This document shows, in pieces, positions 8,390 to 55,970 of a stretch of DNA of 64,000 bases; position 1 is the stretch's first letter, and each line of letters begins with the position of its first letter. The notes under the pieces are model-generated. The model was not told where the DNA came from and searched no databases. It saw only the letters and a program-made list of their open reading frames with translations. This DNA is from a virus. The stretch lies in IMG/VR virus record IMGVR_UViG_3300021963_000077, positions 1 through 64,000 of that record. The stretch is one strand, 5' to 3'. The position numbers and the translations under genes were made by a program.

Positions 8390-8473
8390 GGGGGATTGGC
8401 GGAACAGGCAGACGCTGGGGGCTTAAACCCCCTTGGTAGCAATACCGTGAGGGTTCAAGTCCCTCATCCCCCA
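8390..8473 (+). tRNA. tRNA-Leu (anticodon TAA)
   Basis: GGGGGAT pairs with ATCCCCC and the discriminator is A. The anticodon loop CTTAAAC gives TAA, the variable arm is long as expected for leucine, and the T-arm is GAGGG-TTCAAGT-CCCTC. Confidence 0.94.
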
Positions 8474-8482
8474 CTTAGGGCA

Positions 8483-12152: not shown

Positions 12153-12214
12153 CAAAACCCTATCTCATGTCGTAAAAGTATTTACTGTTAATTGGTTTAA
12201 CATTATCTTATTGG

Positions 12215-12287
12215 TACCCCCAGCAGGGCTCGAACCTGCGACACGCGGATTAAAAGTCCGCTGCTCTACCAACTGAGCTATAGGGGC
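12215..12287 (-). tRNA. tRNA-Lys (anticodon TTT)
   Basis: On the reverse strand the acceptor GCCCCTA pairs with TGGGGGT (two G-U pairs), the discriminator is A and the anticodon loop CTTTTAA gives TTT. D- and T-arms are canonical. Confidence 0.95.
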
Positions 12288-13025: not shown

Positions 13026-13501
13026 GTTCAGTTGAGAGAAACGAGCTTCAATGGTTAATTAGCCTTGAGGTTCTTGCTGCAAACTTTTCAACATGCGCAA
13101 AACGCCAGTATGCAGCTGTTGTTTTAGCTCCAAATAAACGCGTTGTTGGTTTTGGGTACAACGGATCACCGCCGGGCATGGCGCATTGTGTTGATGGAGC
13201 ATGCCCTCGTCTGCAAGAGAATTCGGCAAATGGATCCGTCTACGACACATGCATTTCTCAGCATGCTGAAGCCGGCGCCTTGCTGTGGTCTGATGCTTCA
13301 TTGAGGATTAGCGGAACTCTTATTGTTAACGGCCCACCATGTATGGGATGTGCAAAATTAATAGCTAGTTCTGGAATAAAACGCTTAGTTTTTAAACAGG
13401 ATTCATCATACAAAAACTGGCCCGATGTTGAGTCGTTTTTGATAGCCGCTGGTATAGTCGCAATCGGTGTGAACGTGGCGCTTGCGACCAAGGAGGGTTA
13501 A
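13022..13501 (+). CDS. dCMP deaminase (deoxycytidylate deaminase)
   Basis: The 159-residue enzyme shows the zinc site of the cytidine/dCMP deaminase family: HAE at 81-83 and PCMGC at 106-110. GYNGSPPGMAHC is the substrate loop of dCMP deaminases. It converts dCMP to dUMP, the substrate of thymidylate synthase; a ThyX gene is at 21838. The GTG start overlaps the previous stop (GTGA). Confidence 0.9.
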   Translation: MSSVERNELQWLISLEVLAANFSTCAKRQYAAVVLAPNKRVVGFGYNGSPPGMAHCVDGACPRLQENSANGSVYDTCISQHAEAGALLWSDASLRISGTLIVNGPPCMGCAKLIASSGIKRLVFKQDSSYKNWPDVESFLIAAGIVAIGVNVALATKEG

Positions 13502-28064: not shown

Positions 28065-28253
28065 TTATGATGGGAATTCTATAATCTGACCAGATTTCTC
28101 TGCTTCGTCAATCAAAATCAATGCTTCTTTGAGCAATTGACGATTTTTAGGAGTATCTGGTACTTCAACTTCTTCAAGTGTGTCATCAAACATCGCAGCC
28201 ATCAATATCTGCTGGTAGGTGTTGAAATCAACTTCTGATTTTTGATCTTTCAT
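28065..28253 (-). CDS. small acidic protein, 62 aa
   Basis: The product (MKDQKSEVDFNTYQQILMAA...) is acidic and helical. The ATG overlaps the stop of the 28250 gene (ATGA), so the two are coupled. Position between a head-associated polyprotein and the capsid suggests a head-related helper, but function is unknown. Confidence 0.68.
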   Translation of the reverse strand: MKDQKSEVDFNTYQQILMAAMFDDTLEEVEVPDTPKNRQLLKEALILIDEAEKSGQIIEFPS

Positions 28254-31200
28254 GGTTCCTCACCTATGCGCATTGTGGTATTTAGGTTACTAGTGCTTAG
28301 GTACTGTTTTGTGCGATCATCAAAGATTTCCACAACCCAATTACCATTAGGACTCATGGCCTTGCGTGCTAGTAGCACTGGTTCACCGTCTGAATCATTA
28401 GCCCACAGGCTGAACTCATTAAAGTTACTCATTTCCATAGCCATAATATTTCGGAGATTTGCTTGAATTATGTCTACGTACTCTTCTGGCACTGATCTTC
28501 CAGTTTCTTGCTTTCTATTTCTTATGCGCGATAGCAAAACATCTCTATCACCAACGAAATAGTGCGCTTCAATTTTGTATCCAGCACGAGTCAGTCTGTC
28601 TAAAGTTCCTGGATCGTTGTTGAATTGACCACTTGAGTCAAAGACAACATCAAGCTCTTTTCTGATGGCTTCCTGGATGGTTGCGAATGCAATGTTTTGA
28701 GATTCCGTATGTGTTGCACCAGCAGCCGATGAGTTGCCTCTTGATATATAGCCGTTGTACTCAGGTATTAATTGTTTCATTTCGTCAATGTCAACATGAG
28801 CTGCTTCACGACGAGAAGGAATTCTCCCATCAAAACCATTAAGGCGTTGAGTTGTTTTTCCAGAACCTGGGGCGCCCCCAATGATAATCGCACGCTTTCT
28901 TAGCGTTGTCGGGTCGGTGCTATCTCTTTTCTTTGTTACGTAGTCAGTTATGCCACGCATAATTTCACGCCATACATTGTCGTAGCGCGAATCAGTAACT
29001 TTTCTTCCTCCAGCGCCATACTTTCCCATAGTGTGCTGACCACTCTGGTAGTCGCGTTCACTGAAGGTACTAGGCATCCTCTTGTCAATGTCAAGCATTT
29101 CATTGAGTTTGTAAGACGGCTGTGCCTGCATGGATCCAGATGGCCGACGTCCAGATGGTGTAACTATTGAACCCTTTGGAACAGAGCCACCAATTTTGTC
29201 TAGATAAGCCAGCGCGCTAATTTCTACAGGTGTAATTGACGATGTGCGCGTTCTTGCAGTTGACGCCATTGGCTTACTTGAGTAGTTACGCGTAGACATT
29301 GCACCAGATATAAATCTGCGATACATGGGGTTATCAAGAAGTGCTTGATCTTGTGCTTTTCTAGCCTGAATAGCTTTTCTGTATTCAGTTGGCGACAGTG
29401 CCCTAACCGCACCATCTGCTCGTTCCTCTGCGCGCTTGCGCATTTCCTCAAGCTTTGTCTTTTCATCTCTTAGTCTGTCAACTTTGGTATCTAGGCCATG
29501 GAATAAACCTCTTGTGCCACTACCAACTTCAGCATACTCATCAAGTTGCTGAATTAACTTCATAAACGTCGGGTTAGTATCTACTGCCCACTGATACATC
29601 CTAAAAGCAAAATCTTCCGACGACTCCCCATCTCCGCGGACTGGTTTTGTCTCGTAGAGCCAAGATCCAAGAACCATTGCCCGTGTGTATGCACGACGCG
29701 AAGCTTGATATTCAGCCGATGCTTGATTGCGCGCATTTTTTACTCTGTCAAGCTTCCTATTTAGGCGACGGATCTTTTCATCAATTGCCTTTATTGAGCG
29801 AGGAACAGTTGCTCCTAAAGCATCAATCTCGGCATCAATCTCAGCATTTGCCTTGTTCACCTCATATGCATCACGGCGCTTGATCCATGAACGCTCAGCT
29901 GCATTTATTGCACGTTCAACGTCATCCTTGTCCATTCCGGACTCTTGTCCAGCTTTAAGCAAGGCGCTGCGAAGGATGCTACGTGGTGTTGAATACTCAT
30001 CAGCTAGCTCTTGCAACCAAACATCTTCAGATGTGAATTGATTCCACAGATCTGCTCGCTTCTGTTGCGATGCCTTTGACCTTCCACTCCACGCATTTCT
30101 AAGTTGCTTGCGTTTTTCTTGGCTTGTAGAAATCTCGTCCGAGATGTCATCCCATGTTCGGTCATCATCGTCAAGGTCGCTATCAATGGCCGCCAACATT
30201 TTGTCCCAGTCAATTGACTCTGGATCCTTTAATTCTGGTGGCTCCGGTGCATATCTGTTTGGCTGATCCTCTATCCACTCACGCTCAACCCATGTTGGAT
30301 TTGCAAATGGTGAGTCTTTCCAAATATCGTATGAATTAATTGCGTCATCAAAGAATGATTCATCGTCTTTAGCGGCTTGCTCGACTGATTCAATTAGCTC
30401 TTCATAAGCACGCTCGTACTCATCCTCAACCAGACGCTCCAAGGCATCGTCCCATGGATCTTGATCGGAGCTTGGTGGAGGCGTTACCGACATTGCTCCA
30501 GCTATGCGACGCTTAGACATTGACCCACTGACATTTTTGTTTTTTCGTGGTTCGCGTAGGTCTTCATCTTCATACCGAGCTGCAACCGCATCACCAAACG
30601 ATTGAGCAACAAGGGAGCGCAATGAATTCTTATCGTCTTCACTGAGGTCATATATTGCTGCTAGCTTTGAAAAGCTATCAAAGTCTTCAGGAAGATTAAG
30701 TTGACCGCTCTCTGGATCAAGGTATCCAGAACGTAACTCGTTTATTATTGAATAAAGCTTTGATTGTTGTGCTTTTTGTTGCTCTGGACTTAACGCATCT
30801 TCACCATCAGGATTATCAATCCTTCTAAGACTTGCTCGCATTTCGTCAGGCGTAGCGCTCAATATTTCTTTGGGTGACCTAAAACCAAATACTGCCTCCA
30901 ACCTAGAAGCAGGAAGACTTTCAAGTTTTTCAGACGATACAAAACCAATGGCTTCAAATTGGCTCTCTATGTTTTTGAGTTTTCTATTGTCGCCTGGTTT
31001 ACCGCTAAAAATTGATGGCTCATCAATATATGGAGAATGCATCCATACTTCACCCTTTTGCGAATGGGTGATTGTAAAGCCTTGATCAATTGCTTCATTA
31101 ACCCATTTCTTAAGCTTTGGATCTTGAATACGTTTCATTGCTTGGGCGGTTGTTTCTGGCTGTGGAGTCGTTCGTGTTCCACGACGCAGCTGTGCAATAT

Positions 31201-31855
31201 CTTCAACCCTCAGAGCACCAGATATACGGCGAGGCCGTACCGCTGATGGTATTACTCTTGGCGTTGATGGGCGCTCAAATGCAGTTCCCTCTTGCACTAG
31301 ACCATCTGAATCACCATCAACAGCATTTGGATCATATGGTTCAGTATTTCTAGATATACGGCGAAGCTTTCTTCCCAGTGCTTTAGTATCCTGCGTTTGA
31401 CCAGACTTTGAAGATTTGCTCTTCCATGGGTGACCTTCAGGCAGCAGGTCCGAATCTCCAACATAACGAAGATTTGTTGGTTTACCCTTATCAAGCATTT
31501 TGAGGAATGCGTTTACGCGTCCGTATGCCCACTGGTTGCGAGACATGCCTGGTCTGTGTGAGCTTGAATAAGCACCAGCGCCGCGCCTAAATACCGCCTT
31601 TAGCGTACCAACGCTTGCCATGGCGTGACTTGGCCGGCCAAGTTCAGACATCTTCTTGTTGTGGATACGTACTTTTACCTGAAGTGCTCTAACTATGTCT
31701 TGTGACAGATCTATATCTTTTGCGCTTGACGCAGAAGACGCTGAACCTCTCTGGTTTTTAGAGGATCCAACGATTCGTTCGGATGGTTTTGATGGGGTTG
31801 CAGCTAGGCGGTCTTTTCTAGCCTTGCGCATTTTTTTGTTATTTTCACTCATCAT
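28250..31855 (-). CDS. head-associated polyprotein with C-terminal zeta-toxin-like kinase domain, 1201 aa
   Basis: The N-terminal part (65-145) has the LKAVFRRGAGAYSSSHRPGM region seen in phage structural proteins. A DGDSDGLVQ linker (about 170-196) follows, then RRISGAL (209-215). A middle charged helical part is flanked by RRIAGAM and FISGAM motifs. The C-terminus (about 985-1190) holds a P-loop with GGAPGSGKTT, DSSGQFNN and RNRKQETGRSVPEEY, as in zeta toxins and related kinases. Such kinases phosphorylate sugar nucleotides or other substrates. Whether it is a host effector or a maturation factor is unknown. Confidence 0.75.
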   Translation of the reverse strand: MMSENNKKMRKARKDRLAATPSKPSERIVGSSKNQRGSASSASSAKDIDLSQDIVRALQVKVRIHNKKMSELGRPSHAMASVGTLKAVFRRGAGAYSSSHRPGMSRNQWAYGRVNAFLKMLDKGKPTNLRYVGDSDLLPEGHPWKSKSSKSGQTQDTKALGRKLRRISRNTEPYDPNAVDGDSDGLVQEGTAFERPSTPRVIPSAVRPRRISGALRVEDIAQLRRGTRTTPQPETTAQAMKRIQDPKLKKWVNEAIDQGFTITHSQKGEVWMHSPYIDEPSIFSGKPGDNRKLKNIESQFEAIGFVSSEKLESLPASRLEAVFGFRSPKEILSATPDEMRASLRRIDNPDGEDALSPEQQKAQQSKLYSIINELRSGYLDPESGQLNLPEDFDSFSKLAAIYDLSEDDKNSLRSLVAQSFGDAVAARYEDEDLREPRKNKNVSGSMSKRRIAGAMSVTPPPSSDQDPWDDALERLVEDEYERAYEELIESVEQAAKDDESFFDDAINSYDIWKDSPFANPTWVEREWIEDQPNRYAPEPPELKDPESIDWDKMLAAIDSDLDDDDRTWDDISDEISTSQEKRKQLRNAWSGRSKASQQKRADLWNQFTSEDVWLQELADEYSTPRSILRSALLKAGQESGMDKDDVERAINAAERSWIKRRDAYEVNKANAEIDAEIDALGATVPRSIKAIDEKIRRLNRKLDRVKNARNQASAEYQASRRAYTRAMVLGSWLYETKPVRGDGESSEDFAFRMYQWAVDTNPTFMKLIQQLDEYAEVGSGTRGLFHGLDTKVDRLRDEKTKLEEMRKRAEERADGAVRALSPTEYRKAIQARKAQDQALLDNPMYRRFISGAMSTRNYSSKPMASTARTRTSSITPVEISALAYLDKIGGSVPKGSIVTPSGRRPSGSMQAQPSYKLNEMLDIDKRMPSTFSERDYQSGQHTMGKYGAGGRKVTDSRYDNVWREIMRGITDYVTKKRDSTDPTTLRKRAIIIGGAPGSGKTTQRLNGFDGRIPSRREAAHVDIDEMKQLIPEYNGYISRGNSSAAGATHTESQNIAFATIQEAIRKELDVVFDSSGQFNNDPGTLDRLTRAGYKIEAHYFVGDRDVLLSRIRNRKQETGRSVPEEYVDIIQANLRNIMAMEMSNFNEFSLWANDSDGEPVLLARKAMSPNGNWVVEIFDDRTKQYLSTSNLNTTMRIGEEP

Positions 31856-32870
31856 TCAGAACCATTCCAATACTGGTAGAAACAAAGCGCCTACCATCGA
31901 GCATCCTTGACTGAACCTCAATAAATTGAATTACAGAATTGTTTCTTTGAGACTTTTCTAATATAGCAATACCAGCAGACTTACCACGCATCATTCTTGT
32001 GACTCGCCTAGCAATTCTCTCTTCCGTAGCTCTTTCTCTTCGGTTGCGATCCCTCTGTGCTTGAGGTCCAATTCCTCGCCTACGACGATAATCGGATTCA
32101 TTTGTGCACGGCATCCAAGCAACGCCACCACTAGTAGTTGAATATCTACGAATACCAATGCACCCGAGCTCGCGCGACCTCTTCAAGGCCGATGTCTGAT
32201 TATCAAACACATCAGGATCCCCAGGACGGATTATCATAGGAACACCAAGAGAGTCCTTAACGTTGACAACCGTGCGAGTCGGCCATGCTGATTTCTGCGA
32301 ACCCCTAGAGCGCCTATTTGGAAGATTGTCCCTCATTGCATCAAGATGTCGGATGCCTTCAACATCTTGTTCCTTTAGCACTCTGAGTACCGTTCTTAAC
32401 CTCTTTATGCCTTCTTCGGTGAAGTTCATTGAGAGAGTTTCATCATCCTTTTTTACTGCGCCAGCTTGCTTGATTGCCGCAATTGCGCGCATCAGTGAGC
32501 GCCGGCGTTCTCGAGACTGGGTTTTGGAGTCTCCATACTCAAATTTCGGATCATTTAGAGCATCTTGCAGATACACCATCATGTCCGTGGAAAACTCATT
32601 CCATTCTCGCATTGATATTCCAGATACATTAAATGTCTCTGGTTTGGCCGGCGAACGCGAATATAAGTCCTCATCAGGCTCACTATCTAGGTCCAAGTCT
32701 CCTAGAGCATCACTTAGTTGAGGCTTTGGCGGGTTAAATCTACCCCAAGACATTGCTCCAGAAACTCTTGGTTTAGCAGGTCTTTGAAAAGGGGTTGCAT
32801 CCTGAACTAGTCCGTCATTGTCACCATCAATGGCGTTTGGATCATATCTTTCAAAAATGCGACGTTTCAT
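31845..32870 (-). CDS. head-associated protein beginning with the DxDxDG linker, 341 aa
   Basis: It starts MKRRIFERYDPNAIDGDNDG, so the linker is at the extreme N-terminus, followed by KPRVSGAM (33-40). A later segment ELGCIGIRRYSTTSGGVAWM then PC resembles the LGCSGAH...WMPC module of the 33151 protein. The ATG overlaps the stop of the 95-residue gene upstream in the -1 frame, so the two may once have been, or may still be, expressed as one product. Confidence 0.72.
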   Translation of the reverse strand: MKRRIFERYDPNAIDGDNDGLVQDATPFQRPAKPRVSGAMSWGRFNPPKPQLSDALGDLDLDSEPDEDLYSRSPAKPETFNVSGISMREWNEFSTDMMVYLQDALNDPKFEYGDSKTQSRERRRSLMRAIAAIKQAGAVKKDDETLSMNFTEEGIKRLRTVLRVLKEQDVEGIRHLDAMRDNLPNRRSRGSQKSAWPTRTVVNVKDSLGVPMIIRPGDPDVFDNQTSALKRSRELGCIGIRRYSTTSGGVAWMPCTNESDYRRRRGIGPQAQRDRNRRERATEERIARRVTRMMRGKSAGIAILEKSQRNNSVIQFIEVQSRMLDGRRFVSTSIGMVLNDE

Positions 32871-33154
32871 TGTTTTTTAGCACCGTTTTGTTTGCCCTTA
32901 TTGTTGTCTGGTCTTTTGAGTACACCAGCTGCAATAAGAGTGTCAATATAAAGCTTCCCGACTCCAGCAGGCAATGTTGAAGCAATTTGCTGCACATTCA
33001 TTATACGCATTTGCTCTGATTGCGTGTGGTTTGAGTGGCGCGAGCCAGATTCTGGCCAGTTATTTATTTCATCACATTCTGCAATATTTTGGAAAAATAA
33101 TTCACGTTTTTGTGGGTCAAACGAGTTAACTATTTTCATAATTTCTGAGTTCAT
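32867..33154 (-). CDS. small protein, 95 aa, coupled to the linker protein
   Basis: The ATG at 33154 overlaps the stop of the 33151 gene (ATGA). The product begins MNSEIMKIVNSFDPQKRELF and ends in a basic KGKQNGAKKQ tail, like the tails that precede the DxDxDG linker in other proteins of this set. The next gene begins in the -1 frame at the stop. Confidence 0.65.
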   Translation of the reverse strand: MNSEIMKIVNSFDPQKRELFFQNIAECDEINNWPESGSRHSNHTQSEQMRIMNVQQIASTLPAGVGKLYIDTLIAAGVLKRPDNNKGKQNGAKKQ

Positions 33155-51586: not shown

Positions 51587-52513
51587 CTAACCCGAATACC
51601 GTAGCTTTGGTGGCTTCTTGATCCGAGGTCTAGCTTTTTCAGCATTCCTCAATGCTTCGAGCATTTTGGCTCTGTTGATCTTGACATCCACGATTCGCAT
51701 ACCAAATTTTTCAGCTGCTTCCGCCTCGGAGTGATTGCTGAGGTAGAGCAAGAAGCTTTTCGCATTGGGTGTCAATACTTGTGGATGATTATTAATTAAA
51801 TTAATGATTTCTGTATTAACGCCTTCTAGTTTCTGATCTGCTTCAGTATCAATGATGCGATTGTCTGGAGTGTTGAGATTAAATTCTTCGTTATATCGTT
51901 TAATAAATTTACCGACTAACGCTTGGCTAACTTTTAAAGCCTCAGCAATTTTTTCGTATGATATTCCGTACTGTGAAAAAGTGTACATTAATTGACCTTT
52001 TTCCAGAGACGATAAATCACTTAACCCAATGTCAAAATCCCTTACAGATCTGTCCACGGTTGATTTGTCTACACCGAATGCCTTGGAAACTTCATCTTTG
52101 CTAAATCCATATTTTCTAGCAACTGAAATAATTTTACGCTTTTGCTTAAAAACGCTTCTAGCAGAAATGTTATTTTTTTTCAAAACGACAGAAACATAGT
52201 CGCTTGTCACTCCAACATCCTGCGCAATTTGATTTGGCCCAATGCCGAGTCTTGCCTGTCTTACGATTTCTTTGATGCGCCCGCTGCGATCCACATTTGA
52301 AGTGCTTACATTTCCTAGCTTTTGTTTATTACGTGAGGCGCGCCTAACGGTCGCAATGCTTACTCCATATTTCTTAGCTAGGGCTTTTGCTATCTCGGCT
52401 CGCTCTTTTGGAGTTTTGCCTTTGGCTATTTCTTCGGCCATTTCGTTGCTTCTACGCTCAAATTCAGCTACAGAAGATGCTTGGTTTACAGTTCTTCCCA
52501 CTCCTGTAGTCAT
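51587..52513 (-). CDS. multi-HTH protein of the head block, expressed as -1 frameshift fusion (ATG-only part)
   Basis: This 308-residue frame holds about five helix-turn-helix-like units (YGVSIATVRRA, VGVTSDYVSVVL, YGFSKDEVSKAF with VDKSTVDRSV, YGISYEKIAEALKVSQALVG, EAAEKFGMRIVDVKI). The open frame runs another 49 codons upstream, without ATG/GTG/TTG, into a DGDGDGLIQD linker and VSGSM. That upstream part can be translated only by a -1 frameshift at 52660-52666 in the preceding gene, or from a CTG. The first ATG alone would lose the linker. Confidence 0.7.
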   Translation of the reverse strand: MTTGVGRTVNQASSVAEFERRSNEMAEEIAKGKTPKERAEIAKALAKKYGVSIATVRRASRNKQKLGNVSTSNVDRSGRIKEIVRQARLGIGPNQIAQDVGVTSDYVSVVLKKNNISARSVFKQKRKIISVARKYGFSKDEVSKAFGVDKSTVDRSVRDFDIGLSDLSSLEKGQLMYTFSQYGISYEKIAEALKVSQALVGKFIKRYNEEFNLNTPDNRIIDTEADQKLEGVNTEIINLINNHPQVLTPNAKSFLLYLSNHSEAEAAEKFGMRIVDVKINRAKMLEALRNAEKARPRIKKPPKLRYSG

Positions 52514-52619
52514 GCTTCCGGAGACCGCGCGACGAACTGAGGGTCGTTCAAACTGTGTTGCGTCTTGAATTAGGCCGTCGCCGTCACCATCAAATGCGTT
52601 TGAATCAAACCTATCGGTA

Positions 52620-52666
52620 AGGCGCCCTAGGCGGCGTGCGTCGCCTGTGCGCCTCAGGCTTTTAAA
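52620..52666 (-). promoter_or_regulatory. predicted programmed -1 ribosomal frameshift signal
   Basis: The zero-frame codons GAT TTA AAA GCC TGA contain the slippery heptamer T TTA AAA (52660-52666) in the correct X XXY YYZ phase, 3 nt before the stop. After a 5-nt spacer, AGGCGC (52649-52654) pairs with GCGCCT (52620-52625), with an inner GGCG/CGCC stem, a stimulator-like hairpin. The -1 frame continues without a stop into the multi-HTH ORF and encodes the shared linker. Confidence 0.72.
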
Positions 52667-53013
52667 TCAAGACCGCTAGCAACAGACTTGACTACAGCAC
52701 TAATTGCATCTATTGCGTCTTCGTCCAGGTAATCCATATCCTCGATAACTAAAGACTTTGTTTCCTGCTGTATGGAAACACCGTAGTAATCAAGCACGGG
52801 CTCAAGAAAAGATTTAGCCCCCATCAGGGCCTCGTCGTCGCCAGTAATCACAAGGTTTACCTTGTTCTTGCCGCCATCAGATGAATCTATGACTTCCGCC
52901 AAAAGCTCTAAGGCTTGTCTTAATTTGCCCATATTCCTGTTGCTAATAACGCGACCACTCTTTACGTCAATGTCGTTTCCATATGGTGTTGAAAGAAAAA
53001 TTTTAGTTTCCAT
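52654..53013 (-). CDS. small protein, zero-frame part of a frameshift fusion, 119 aa
   Basis: The ATG at 53013 overlaps the stop of the protease gene (TAATG). The product (METKIFLSTPYGNDIDVKSG...) resembles, in size and position, the domain that precedes the linker in the protease protein (LEDGLVVPNSDSMSEEGYEA). Termination gives 119 residues. A -1 shift after Lys118 would give a fusion of about 475 residues with the linker and multi-HTH part. Confidence 0.75.
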   Translation of the reverse strand: METKIFLSTPYGNDIDVKSGRVISNRNMGKLRQALELLAEVIDSSDGGKNKVNLVITGDDEALMGAKSFLEPVLDYYGVSIQQETKSLVIEDMDYLDEDAIDAISAVVKSVASGLDLKA

Positions 53014-55970
53014 TATCGCCTGTTCCCATAATCTCGCCATAACTGTTGAAGTCTGTTTAAATCAGCTGTTGATATTTGACCATTGTCAAAGCGCTCTAAA
53101 ATTCTCTGAACTATTTGAAATCCGCGATTTTTCCTAGCCCAATCAATTGATTGATTCTGCTGTCTTGTGAGAACCCTTTTGCCTATTTTTCCACTTTGCA
53201 GTTGCTTAAGCATGTCGTCTAGCCCTTGGCCAGATCTGGCCCCAAACTGTTTTGCGGTGTCATAGTCGAGTTCATACTGCTCAACACTGCCATCACCCAT
53301 ATTGAATATGACGCGGTTTGTCTGTGGGTCATATGCGGCATCCGATACTCGCCTGCTACCTCGAGTATCAAACTTCATTAAATAACTAGGAATTGCTGGC
53401 CTGTCTGGATTATCTTGACCCGATCCAGTCATTGACCCAGACACGGAGCGCTTGTTCTTGCGACTACGAAGAACGTCTAGGAAATCTTCCACGGCATTGG
53501 CTGGGCGAGGCTCCAAAACTGAGTTTGCGTGGATCCTCTCAGCTTCGCTTTCGCTAACTTTATGTTCTTCCGTCCTACCATTAATCAATGTAAAACGAGC
53601 AGTACCAGACTCTTTGTCGTAGGTAGCGTCTTTTAGGATTCTTGAACCACGCGTGTCAAATGATGGAGTTTTGTTATCTTTGCTCCATCCAAACTTTTCT
53701 AGGTGTTTTCTAGCCTCTTCGCTAAACCCTGAATATTGCGGCTTGGGGCGATTTGAAATAGATCCAGATACGCGAGGAGTTTTATCTTTTGGGTTATCAC
53801 CCTCAGTACGACGTTTCATAGAGGCAATTCGCATTTCAATTTGCCTAACTTGAGCACGTGTCATATTCATGCGTTGCGATACGTCATCGAGCGACATACC
53901 GTCCTCTGTGCGCATTTTCCAAATTTGATCACGAATTTTCTTGGCTTGGCGCATTTCAGATTGTCTCACCTCTTCACGCGTGATGCCAAAATTCTTCGCA
54001 ACTTCATCCAGCGACATGCCGCCTTCTGTGCGCATTTTCCAAATCTTCTCTGGTGTCGGCTTGCCCTTTGCCATTGAACCAGATATCCGCGACCCAACTG
54101 GTACTGGTCTTTCTGGCCGTGGCCCAGGCGTTGGCGTTGGTGCAGGGCTAGGAACCGATGGTCTGACTGGTGGGCGAATTGGCTCTCTTGCTGGCTCCGG
54201 AACCTTTCGCGGTGGATTCATTGGGGGCATCATGCGAGGCGCATTTGGGCGCTCAAATGATGTGCTGTCTTGCACTAAACCGTCTTCGTCCCCATCAATT
54301 GCATTAGGATCAAAACGATCTGTTGCCATTCTCCCCATACGTCTGAGTTTGCGACCAACAGCCTTCTCTTCTAAGAAGTTAATTGCCGTCAGTAGCGCCT
54401 CGTAGCCCTCTTCTGACATGGAGTCACTGTTTGGAACAACAAGACCATCTTCAAGACTCTTGACATCAAATCCATGATATTTAGCTACAGCACTAGCTAC
54501 CTCTAGCAATTCATCAATTTCGCTTTCGGATTGGATAAATAGATGAATTCCAGGGTTTTCACTCTTGAAAGCATCCCATGACGGCATGTCATCAATGACA
54601 TATGATTTCCCACCACCACATCCACAACCACAATCATCCTTAGCCGGCTTCATGGCCACTCCGCCAAATGCCGCTCCAAAGTCATCATTGTCGTCGCCTA
54701 CATATGCATTTCCTGGAGCGCTTTGTGGCTTGCCAACAGGCATGTAAATTGTCTCTGGCTTCACCGTTTCAGCATTTCCAAACATGAATTCGCCATCTTC
54801 GTAGTGATAGCCGACTCGGATTGTCTGCATATCTCCGAAGTCGTTCATGAGGTCAAAAATAACCATGTTTTTATCTGCTGTACGGATTTTTACTTTGCCG
54901 CCAAACCGTTGAGAAATAGCCTTGGCAAGGTCGTTAACACGCCCAAATGCTGGATTCATCTCCTCGTCGCCAGTATAGATACGGGATGTGTCGTAGCTAG
55001 GGTGGCCTTTTTTCTTCACATTCTGGTATCTCTCAAGGAGTCGCCGGCCTTTAGCTGCAAGCTCTGCTGCATCGGATGCATTTTTAGGAACTGGTTCACC
55101 CCATGCAGCGGCAGCTAGCGCTAGACGAGTCGGCTTGCCATTTTTGCCGACAAGTGGGCCAGATGGGTTTGTATAGAATCGCGTCAAGAACGAGCCTTTA
55201 CGACGCATTTTCTCTGGTGTGTCAGCTGGGCCCTTGACGCCTGGCTTTAGATTTGCGCCTTCCTTCTGCTTAAAGTACTTGCGCCCTGCTGGCGTCAGGC
55301 CACCCTTTGGATCCCTCAAATTTGCTGATTTGCCTTCAGGCTCAGAAGGCACGCAATTTGGCACCATTTTGCCGTTTTTGCCCTTCTTCATTCCTACCTG
55401 CTGGTAACCGGGCCAGCAAGGACTACCTGCCTTGCTTTCCGGATCGTCGGATTTGATTGAAATTGTGCCAGTCAGCTGATTGGCTCCGTGGAGAACTGGG
55501 GAAACCTCATAGAGTTCAACCTCTTTAAGGAGATTTGCTTGCTGAACTGGGTCAAATACTGCGTCAAGGGTCTTGTAACCAATTGACCACTCTTGCTCTT
55601 CGCCAAAGAAGGCAACATTATTGAAAGCCTCACGACCACGCTCAGAACGCAAATTAAATTGCACTCTTGCATAAAGTCCACCAATTCCGGCTTTTTTCAT
55701 CTTTAGCGGTAGGCGTGGATCATTCGGTGGCACCTCATATATTTCCAGAACCTTACCGATTGGCTCATTCCAGTTATGACCCCAAACAACTCTCGGCTTA
55801 CGTCTTTTAAGACTTGCTCCAAAACAGTTCGGGAGGCAAATATCGCCAACAGAATCTTTATTGCCGATGCCAGCAACGAAGCATTCAACGATGCCCTGCG
55901 CTTCGTCAACCCCGATTTGAGCTGGAATTGACTTGTATTCTGTTGCAAATAGCGATGATTGGTCAGACAT
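53013..55970 (-). CDS. HK97-type prohead protease fused to DxDxDG-linked accessory domains, 985 aa
   Basis: Residues 1-170 are an S78-type prohead protease: RVVWGHNW (His65), EWSIGYKT (Ser129) and an acidic residue near 150. A DUF6321-like region (GGLTPAGRKYFKQKEGANLK) follows, then a GCGCGGGKS spacer and the linker (about 551-573, DPNAIDGDEDGLVQD). After a Pro-rich stretch and ISGSM come two HTH units (MSLDEVAKNFGITREEVRQ and MSLDDVSQRMNMTRAQVRQI), SGSI and SGSM motifs, and KTSC-like repeats (FDTRGSRRVSDAAYDPQTNR). Typical proteases are about 200 residues. GGAGGAAAA precedes the ATG. Confidence 0.85.
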   Translation of the reverse strand: MSDQSSLFATEYKSIPAQIGVDEAQGIVECFVAGIGNKDSVGDICLPNCFGASLKRRKPRVVWGHNWNEPIGKVLEIYEVPPNDPRLPLKMKKAGIGGLYARVQFNLRSERGREAFNNVAFFGEEQEWSIGYKTLDAVFDPVQQANLLKEVELYEVSPVLHGANQLTGTISIKSDDPESKAGSPCWPGYQQVGMKKGKNGKMVPNCVPSEPEGKSANLRDPKGGLTPAGRKYFKQKEGANLKPGVKGPADTPEKMRRKGSFLTRFYTNPSGPLVGKNGKPTRLALAAAAWGEPVPKNASDAAELAAKGRRLLERYQNVKKKGHPSYDTSRIYTGDEEMNPAFGRVNDLAKAISQRFGGKVKIRTADKNMVIFDLMNDFGDMQTIRVGYHYEDGEFMFGNAETVKPETIYMPVGKPQSAPGNAYVGDDNDDFGAAFGGVAMKPAKDDCGCGCGGGKSYVIDDMPSWDAFKSENPGIHLFIQSESEIDELLEVASAVAKYHGFDVKSLEDGLVVPNSDSMSEEGYEALLTAINFLEEKAVGRKLRRMGRMATDRFDPNAIDGDEDGLVQDSTSFERPNAPRMMPPMNPPRKVPEPAREPIRPPVRPSVPSPAPTPTPGPRPERPVPVGSRISGSMAKGKPTPEKIWKMRTEGGMSLDEVAKNFGITREEVRQSEMRQAKKIRDQIWKMRTEDGMSLDDVSQRMNMTRAQVRQIEMRIASMKRRTEGDNPKDKTPRVSGSISNRPKPQYSGFSEEARKHLEKFGWSKDNKTPSFDTRGSRILKDATYDKESGTARFTLINGRTEEHKVSESEAERIHANSVLEPRPANAVEDFLDVLRSRKNKRSVSGSMTGSGQDNPDRPAIPSYLMKFDTRGSRRVSDAAYDPQTNRVIFNMGDGSVEQYELDYDTAKQFGARSGQGLDDMLKQLQSGKIGKRVLTRQQNQSIDWARKNRGFQIVQRILERFDNGQISTADLNRLQQLWRDYGNRR

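What the first reader, a model, noticed from the sequence alone, without database searches (positions are those of the whole stretch)
52620..52666. Canonical -1 frameshift signal that alone restores a shared linker
T TTA AAA is in phase just before the stop of the 52654 gene, followed after 5 nt by AGGCGC...GCGCCT with an inner GGCG/CGCC stem. The -1 frame has 49 sense codons before its first ATG, and these encode RFDSNAFDGDGDGLIQD plus VSGSM, the same order as in the protease fusion. No ATG, GTG or TTG could start that region. The fusion would be about 475 residues against 119 for the terminated product.
Basis: partly seen in the sequence, partly recalled or inferred. Interest (0 to 1): 0.85.

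Follow-up and report, generated by a model that had tools for sequence, protein, structure and literature searches.

The report
Frameshift fuses phage head-gene modules
Near a phage's capsid-protease gene, a short signal most likely makes some ribosomes slip back one letter and so build a long fusion protein from two reading frames; related phages carry the same kind of signal at equivalent joints or encode the same fusion in one frame.

Summary
Confirmed and strengthened. On the minus strand, T TTA AAA (52666-52660) lies in phase one codon before the UGA of a 119-aa gene, followed 5 nt later by the most stable 40-nt stretch in the surrounding 3 kb. The -1 frame has no ATG/GTG/TTG for 49 codons, yet encodes the linker RFDxNAxDGDxDGLxQD.

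New evidence. (1) Two relatives (about 90% identical) keep heptamer, stop and stem and hold the -1 frame under purifying selection. (2) At least 30 other viral contigs encode the same domain-plus-linker module in one continuous frame; the slip point falls exactly at that joint. (3) Similar cassettes occur in three further lineages: a stand-alone homologue (T TTA AAA + perfect 10-bp hairpin), a protease gene at the same joint (A AAA AAA + 7-bp stem) and another head-region gene (C CCA AAA + hairpin). (4) At 2,205 ORF ends, structured in-phase -1 cassettes number 8 (four plausible lineages, one probable artefact); off-phase and +1 controls give 0-1.

Best reading: programmed -1 ribosomal frameshifting yields a minor 475-aa fusion (domain-linker-HTH array) beside a major 119-aa protein. 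Main rival: coupled re-initiation at the overlapping CTG. No expression data exist; efficiency and function are inferred.

The parts
52657..53013 (-). 0-frame gene: 119-aa domain protein (METKIFL...GLDLKA, stop 52656-52654), starting at ATG 53013 that overlaps the protease stop
   Evidence: homologous to the domain before the linker in the protease gene and to stand-alone 116-aa genes in G002/G034/L271
52660..52666 (-). slippery heptamer T TTA AAA, in phase
   Evidence: invariant in both relatives; 1 of 14,986 codon pairs by background
52654..52656 (-). 0-frame UGA stop, one codon after the heptamer; overlaps a -1 frame CTG (CTGA)
52620..52654 (-). stimulatory stem-loop: AGGCGC/GCGCCT plus inner stem, 5-nt spacer after the heptamer
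   Evidence: most stable of 987 local 40-nt windows; changes in relatives fall in the loop or keep pairs (A.C to A-U, G-C to G.U)
51587..52666 (-). -1 frame: SLRRTGD...RFDSNAFDGDGDGLIQDATQFERP linker, then VSGSM and an array of helix-turn-helix units; 357 residues after the slip
52541..52612 (-). shared linker (RFDSNAFDGDGDGLIQDATQFERP), reached only through the -1 frame
53013..55970 (-). prohead-protease polyprotein: protease, DUF6321, paralogous domain + linker in one frame, HTH pair, SGSM repeats

Best explanation
The site is a programmed -1 ribosomal frameshift signal. Most ribosomes finish the 119-aa protein at UGA 52656. A fraction, paused by the stem-loop with Leu-tRNA on UUA and Lys-tRNA on AAA, slip to UUU AAA and continue SLRR... 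through the linker and the HTH array to 51587, giving a 475-aa fusion. The two proteins share an N-terminal domain, so the virus gets a fixed minor share of that domain carrying a linker plus a probable DNA-binding array, next to the prohead protease and portal genes. Shown: the anatomy, conservation, purifying selection in the -1 frame, and the same module in one frame or behind comparable slip sites elsewhere. Inferred: that slipping happens, its efficiency, and the head-assembly or genome-binding role.
For: Canonical heptamer, 5-nt spacer, strong stem. Heptamer, UGA and outer stem invariant in two relatives; pre-ATG -1 frame shows 10 synonymous against 6 non-synonymous codon changes, control frames 5/12 and 0/16; post-ATG 56/31 against 10/75 and 11/72 (window vs L001). 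Relatives replace ATG 52513 by GTG yet keep the upstream linker. Domain and linker are contiguous in one ORF in at least 30 other contigs and the window's own protease. Of 145 distinct linkers scanned, only this gene's and L158's lack a start codon. Independent cassettes: L158 lineage A AAA AAA GUC UGA + 7-bp stem at the same joint; G002/G034/L271 T TTA AAA UGA + perfect 10-bp hairpin inside a conserved stretch of about 45 nt; L139/L272/L273 C CCA AAA GCC UAA + hairpin. Control scan: 8 structured in-phase -1 sites against 0-1 off-phase or +1. The virus encodes tRNA-Leu(UAA) and tRNA-Lys(UUU), matching the two slip codons.
Against: No expression data. The close family is three sequences, two of them nearly identical to each other. 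In E. coli U_UU.A_AA.A is not among the most efficient heptamers, although 61 of 64 were shift-prone with a strong stimulator (PMC4066793). The CTG overlapping the UGA copies the ATGA-type overlaps used by neighbouring genes, many of which lack a Shine-Dalgarno, so re-initiation is not excluded. The window's fold alone is only moderately significant against shuffles.
Confidence: 0.84

Rival explanations
1. Coupled re-initiation: ribosomes terminating at UGA restart at the overlapping CTG (CTGA) and make a separate linker-HTH protein (M-RRTGDARRLGRL...) with no fusion.
For: ATGA/TAATG overlaps without Shine-Dalgarno are common here. The window's 32870 gene begins MKRRIFERYDPNAIDGDNDG with ATGA. 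17 of 145 linkers sit within 30 codons of an ATG start.
Against: CTG is a poor start codon (established knowledge) and no other gene in the module was seen to need it. CTG lies at the base of the stem. It does not explain the in-phase heptamer or its retention with a hairpin in a 33%-identical homologue. The comparable L139 joint reads CTA, not CTG. The residues K-S-L-R across the slip match K-A-L-R in one-frame homologues.
Confidence: 0.1
2. The 0-frame and -1 frame are two genes with a degenerate joint; the real downstream product starts at ATG 52513 and the upstream linker is an untranslated relic.
For: ATG 52513 exists in the window and the HTH array follows it.
Against: The ATG is GTG in both relatives, with no well-spaced ribosome-binding site; the pre-ATG -1 codons are under purifying selection and keep the linker.
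Confidence: 0.03
3. A sequencing or assembly indel, or a recent inactivating frameshift mutation, split one continuous gene.
For: Many relatives encode domain and linker in one frame; the L158 site is an A8 run, where indels are common.
Against: The same disposition is present in three contigs, two of them from different metagenomes, with about 10% divergence from the window and -1 frame selection. T TTA AAA is not a long homopolymer. Heptamer and stem recur in other lineages.
Confidence: 0.03

Closest known systems
C-terminal extensions of phage structural proteins made by -1 frameshifting (T7/T3 gene 10, Lactobacillus phage A2, Listeria A118/A500; PMC5009743)
   Same: Same layout: a shorter product and a longer product sharing its N-terminus, in phage structural genes; extension modules attached in frame in some phages and by frameshift in others, as discussed there for Ig-like domains
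   Different: The extension here is a DGDxDG-type linker plus HTH array on a small protein beside the prohead protease, not an Ig-like domain on the major capsid protein; the carrier gene family matched nothing in Pfam or PHROGs
Lambda-type tail assembly chaperone G/GT frameshift (PMC5009743)
   Same: -1 frameshift near the end of a small gene giving a minor fusion at a set ratio
   Different: Located in the head region next to the protease, not before the tape-measure gene; products unrelated
IS1/IS3-family -1 frameshift cassettes (PMC4066793)
   Same: X XXY YYZ heptamer plus a structure starting 5-8 nt downstream
   Different: No transposase; different gene and purpose

Membership tests
Bacterial/phage -1 programmed ribosomal frameshift site | X XXY YYZ heptamer in phase with the 0 frame | tested here: met
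   T TTA AAA 52666-52660
Bacterial/phage -1 programmed ribosomal frameshift site | Stimulatory structure 5-8 nt downstream | tested here: met
   Stem begins 5 nt after heptamer
Bacterial/phage -1 programmed ribosomal frameshift site | Overlapping -1 ORF conserved and under coding selection | tested here: met
Bacterial/phage -1 programmed ribosomal frameshift site | Heptamer conserved in homologues | tested here: met
   Both close relatives and the 33%-identical G002/G034/L271 homologues
Bacterial/phage -1 programmed ribosomal frameshift site | Trans-frame product observed at a measurable rate | not testable with these tools
   needs reporter or mass spectrometry
Bacterial/phage -1 programmed ribosomal frameshift site | Upstream Shine-Dalgarno-like stimulator (optional, not defining) | tested here: not met
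   No SD-like motif in the 22 nt upstream of the CTG in the window; the feature is optional in known sites
Ig-like-domain capsid/tail extension by frameshift | Extension is an Ig-like domain | tested here: not met
   Extension matches HTH families
Tail assembly chaperone G/GT | Position upstream of the tape measure gene, tail region | tested here: not met
   Site lies directly after portal and prohead protease genes

The most novel reading that the evidence does not exclude
This group of uncultivated phages uses -1 frameshifting repeatedly as a joining device between modules of its head-region proteins: slip cassettes at module joints arose several times (T TTA AAA, A AAA AAA, C CCA AAA), so that the same linker or DNA-binding module is supplied in a fixed minor share in some viruses and in one frame in others.
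Probability: 0.5. Interest if true: 0.72.

Novelty: new variant of a known kind. Interest (0 to 1): 0.58.

Why it matters
It would add a frameshifted gene family to phage head regions, with natural controls: close relatives that keep the cassette, distant ones that encode the fusion in one frame, and ones that have only the terminated form. That makes it possible to ask what fixes the ratio of short to long product and why a head-region protein should carry a linker plus an array of DNA-binding units. Gene callers drop the linker or start the second gene at ATG 52513, so such fusions are probably missed in viral databases.

Tried and rejected
Protein searches of P0001 against Pfam and PHROGs gave nothing. 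Megablast of the region and tblastn of P0002 against annotated phages gave nothing; the protease matched Gordonia, Arthrobacter, Streptomyces and Brevibacterium phages at about 30-42% over its N-terminal 175 residues. A linker scan of bacterial genomes gave only two weak loci. A second in-phase heptamer, T TTA AAC, near the end of the window's protease gene and opening the -1 frame into P0001, was rejected: both relatives' translations begin LKQTS instead of FKQTS, so the first base is changed. L117/L119/L120 matched the search pattern by chance; L240-L244, L249 and L250 are in-frame. L053 in the control scan is probably an antisense artefact (inference). The AlphaFold model of the 119-aa domain is too poor to interpret (mean pLDDT 55); the HTH-array model is moderate (64) and its PDB matches are non-significant sigma-factor-like helices. 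Rfam found no known element. No paper in the library contains the linker string.

Full report
What was checked. The minus strand of 52600-53013 reads ...GGT CTT GAT TTA AAA GCC TGA GGCGCACAGGCGACGCACGCCGCCTAGGGCGCCTTACC.... The window lies in an 89,510-base virus record in which the neighbouring genes are a portal, a prohead protease and further long module-rich proteins.

Chance. In-phase canonical heptamers occur at 40 of 14,986 codon pairs in the window's long genes and T TTA AAA at one; none of the 40 is followed by as stable a 40-nt fold. The 40 nt after the site rank first of 987 local windows. Shuffle z-scores are -1.5 to -2.5 for the window and about -3 to -4 for the relatives.

Close relatives. 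Two contigs from other metagenomes (L001/L008 and L002/L009) keep heptamer, stop and the outer stem unchanged; four positions vary in the 57-nt cassette, and those inside the stem-loop are in the loop or preserve pairing. Comparing window and L001 in the -1 frame before the ATG, 10 codons changed synonymously and 6 non-synonymously, against 5/12 and 0/16 in the control frames; after the ATG 56/31 against 10/75 and 11/72. The ATG at 52513 is GTG in both relatives while the linker before it persists, which argues against a product starting there.

The linker. K-x-RR-x-GR...RFDPNAxDGDxDGLVQDxTxFERP occurs at seven places in the window and in hundreds of viral stretches (286 confirmed). Among 145 distinct instances in the DNA held, 120 are deep inside ORFs, 17 lie close behind an ATG, 5 run off a contig end, and only this gene's and L158's have no start codon (near-identical copies collapse). 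In at least 30 other contigs, and in the window's own protease, the domain homologous to the 119-aa protein is followed by the linker in one continuous frame. The slip therefore rebuilds a module that exists in one frame elsewhere, at the same joint.

Other cassettes. (a) L158 and four further assemblies of the same virus: the protease frame ends ...SIFGETEKKV* at A AAA AAA GUC UGA, a 7-bp stem follows after 6 nt, and the -1 frame gives KKSLRGRAQSFDPNAVDGDEDG. These five assemblies are one population, and the A8 run leaves transcriptional slippage or an indel possible there. (b) G002, G034 and L271: a stand-alone homologue of the 119-aa gene (about 33% identity) with no linker after it ends TAT TTA AAA TGA, followed after 7 nt by a perfect 10-bp hairpin. 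About 45 nt are almost invariant although the gene itself has 26 synonymous and 15 non-synonymous codon changes between G002 and L271, and the downstream gene differs by indels. The -1 frame there enters the next gene, which also has its own ATG. (c) L139/L272/L273: a relative of the 482-aa gene ends C CCA AAA GCC UAA with a strong hairpin, and the -1 frame continues without a start codon into a region conserved with in-frame homologues. A scan of 2,205 ORF ends found 16 in-phase heptamers with an open -1 frame, 8 of them strongly structured, including all of these; off-phase and +1 controls gave 0-1, the off-phase ones being the same A8 run. About 10% of comparable ORF ends have such structure by background (72 of 717).

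Mechanism. The simplest account is -1 frameshifting that yields 119-aa and 475-aa proteins sharing a domain. The extension adds the linker and an array of helix-turn-helix units. The virus also carries tRNA-Leu(UAA) and tRNA-Lys(UUU) genes, the tRNAs expected on the two slip codons. That slipping occurs, and at what rate, is not shown. In E. coli this heptamer is not in the most efficient group, but nearly all heptamers shift with a strong stimulator (PMC4066793). A role in head assembly or genome binding is an inference from gene neighbourhood and HTH content.

Rival. CTG re-initiation stays the main rival because neighbouring genes use ATGA/TAATG overlaps without Shine-Dalgarno and because N-terminal linkers with ATG exist. 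It does not explain the heptamer, its persistence in distant homologues, or the comparable L139 joint where the codon is CTA.

Novelty. Phage structural genes that make a C-terminal extension by -1 frameshifting, with extension modules attached in frame or out of frame in different phages, are known (PMC5009743). What is different here is the gene family, the linker-HTH extension, and the recurrence of cassettes at module joints of head-region genes.

Noticed in passing
L158:1340-1420 (also L245, L246, L247, L251): Second -1 cassette, A AAA AAA GUC UGA + 7-bp stem, at the same domain/linker joint but inside a protease gene; five near-identical assemblies, one virus population.
   Followed up: yes
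L271:3318-3365; L111 and L112 equivalents: T TTA AAA UGA + 7-nt spacer + perfect 10-bp hairpin at the end of the stand-alone homologue; -1 frame enters the next gene, which also has an ATG.
   Followed up: yes
L139 (minus strand, about 13133-13200 of the reverse complement); L272, L273: C CCA AAA GCC UAA + hairpin at the end of a relative of the 482-aa gene; the -1 frame continues without a start codon into a MAGSKGG-type domain.
   Followed up: partly
window 31318, 32828, 34245, 47255, 52591, 54296 (-) and the 33151-35904 gene: The DGDxDGLVQD linker recurs at least seven times among the head-region proteins of one virus; it resembles a calcium-binding loop and its role is unknown.
   Followed up: partly
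window 32867-32890 (-): Gene 31845-32870 begins with the linker behind an ATGA overlap preceded by TAAAAAAC; a normally started N-terminal linker, useful as a contrast.
   Followed up: partly
window 53013-55970 and 28250-31855 (-): Repeated SGSM/SGAM motifs between modules, possibly processing sites of the prohead protease.
   Followed up: no
window 8390-8474 (+) and 12212-12287 (-): Virus-encoded tRNA-Leu(UAA) and tRNA-Lys(UUU), the decoders of the two slip codons, among ten tRNA genes.
   Followed up: no
window about 53050-53060 (-): In-phase T TTA AAC near the end of the protease gene would open the -1 frame into the 119-aa gene, but it is not kept in relatives.
   Followed up: yes
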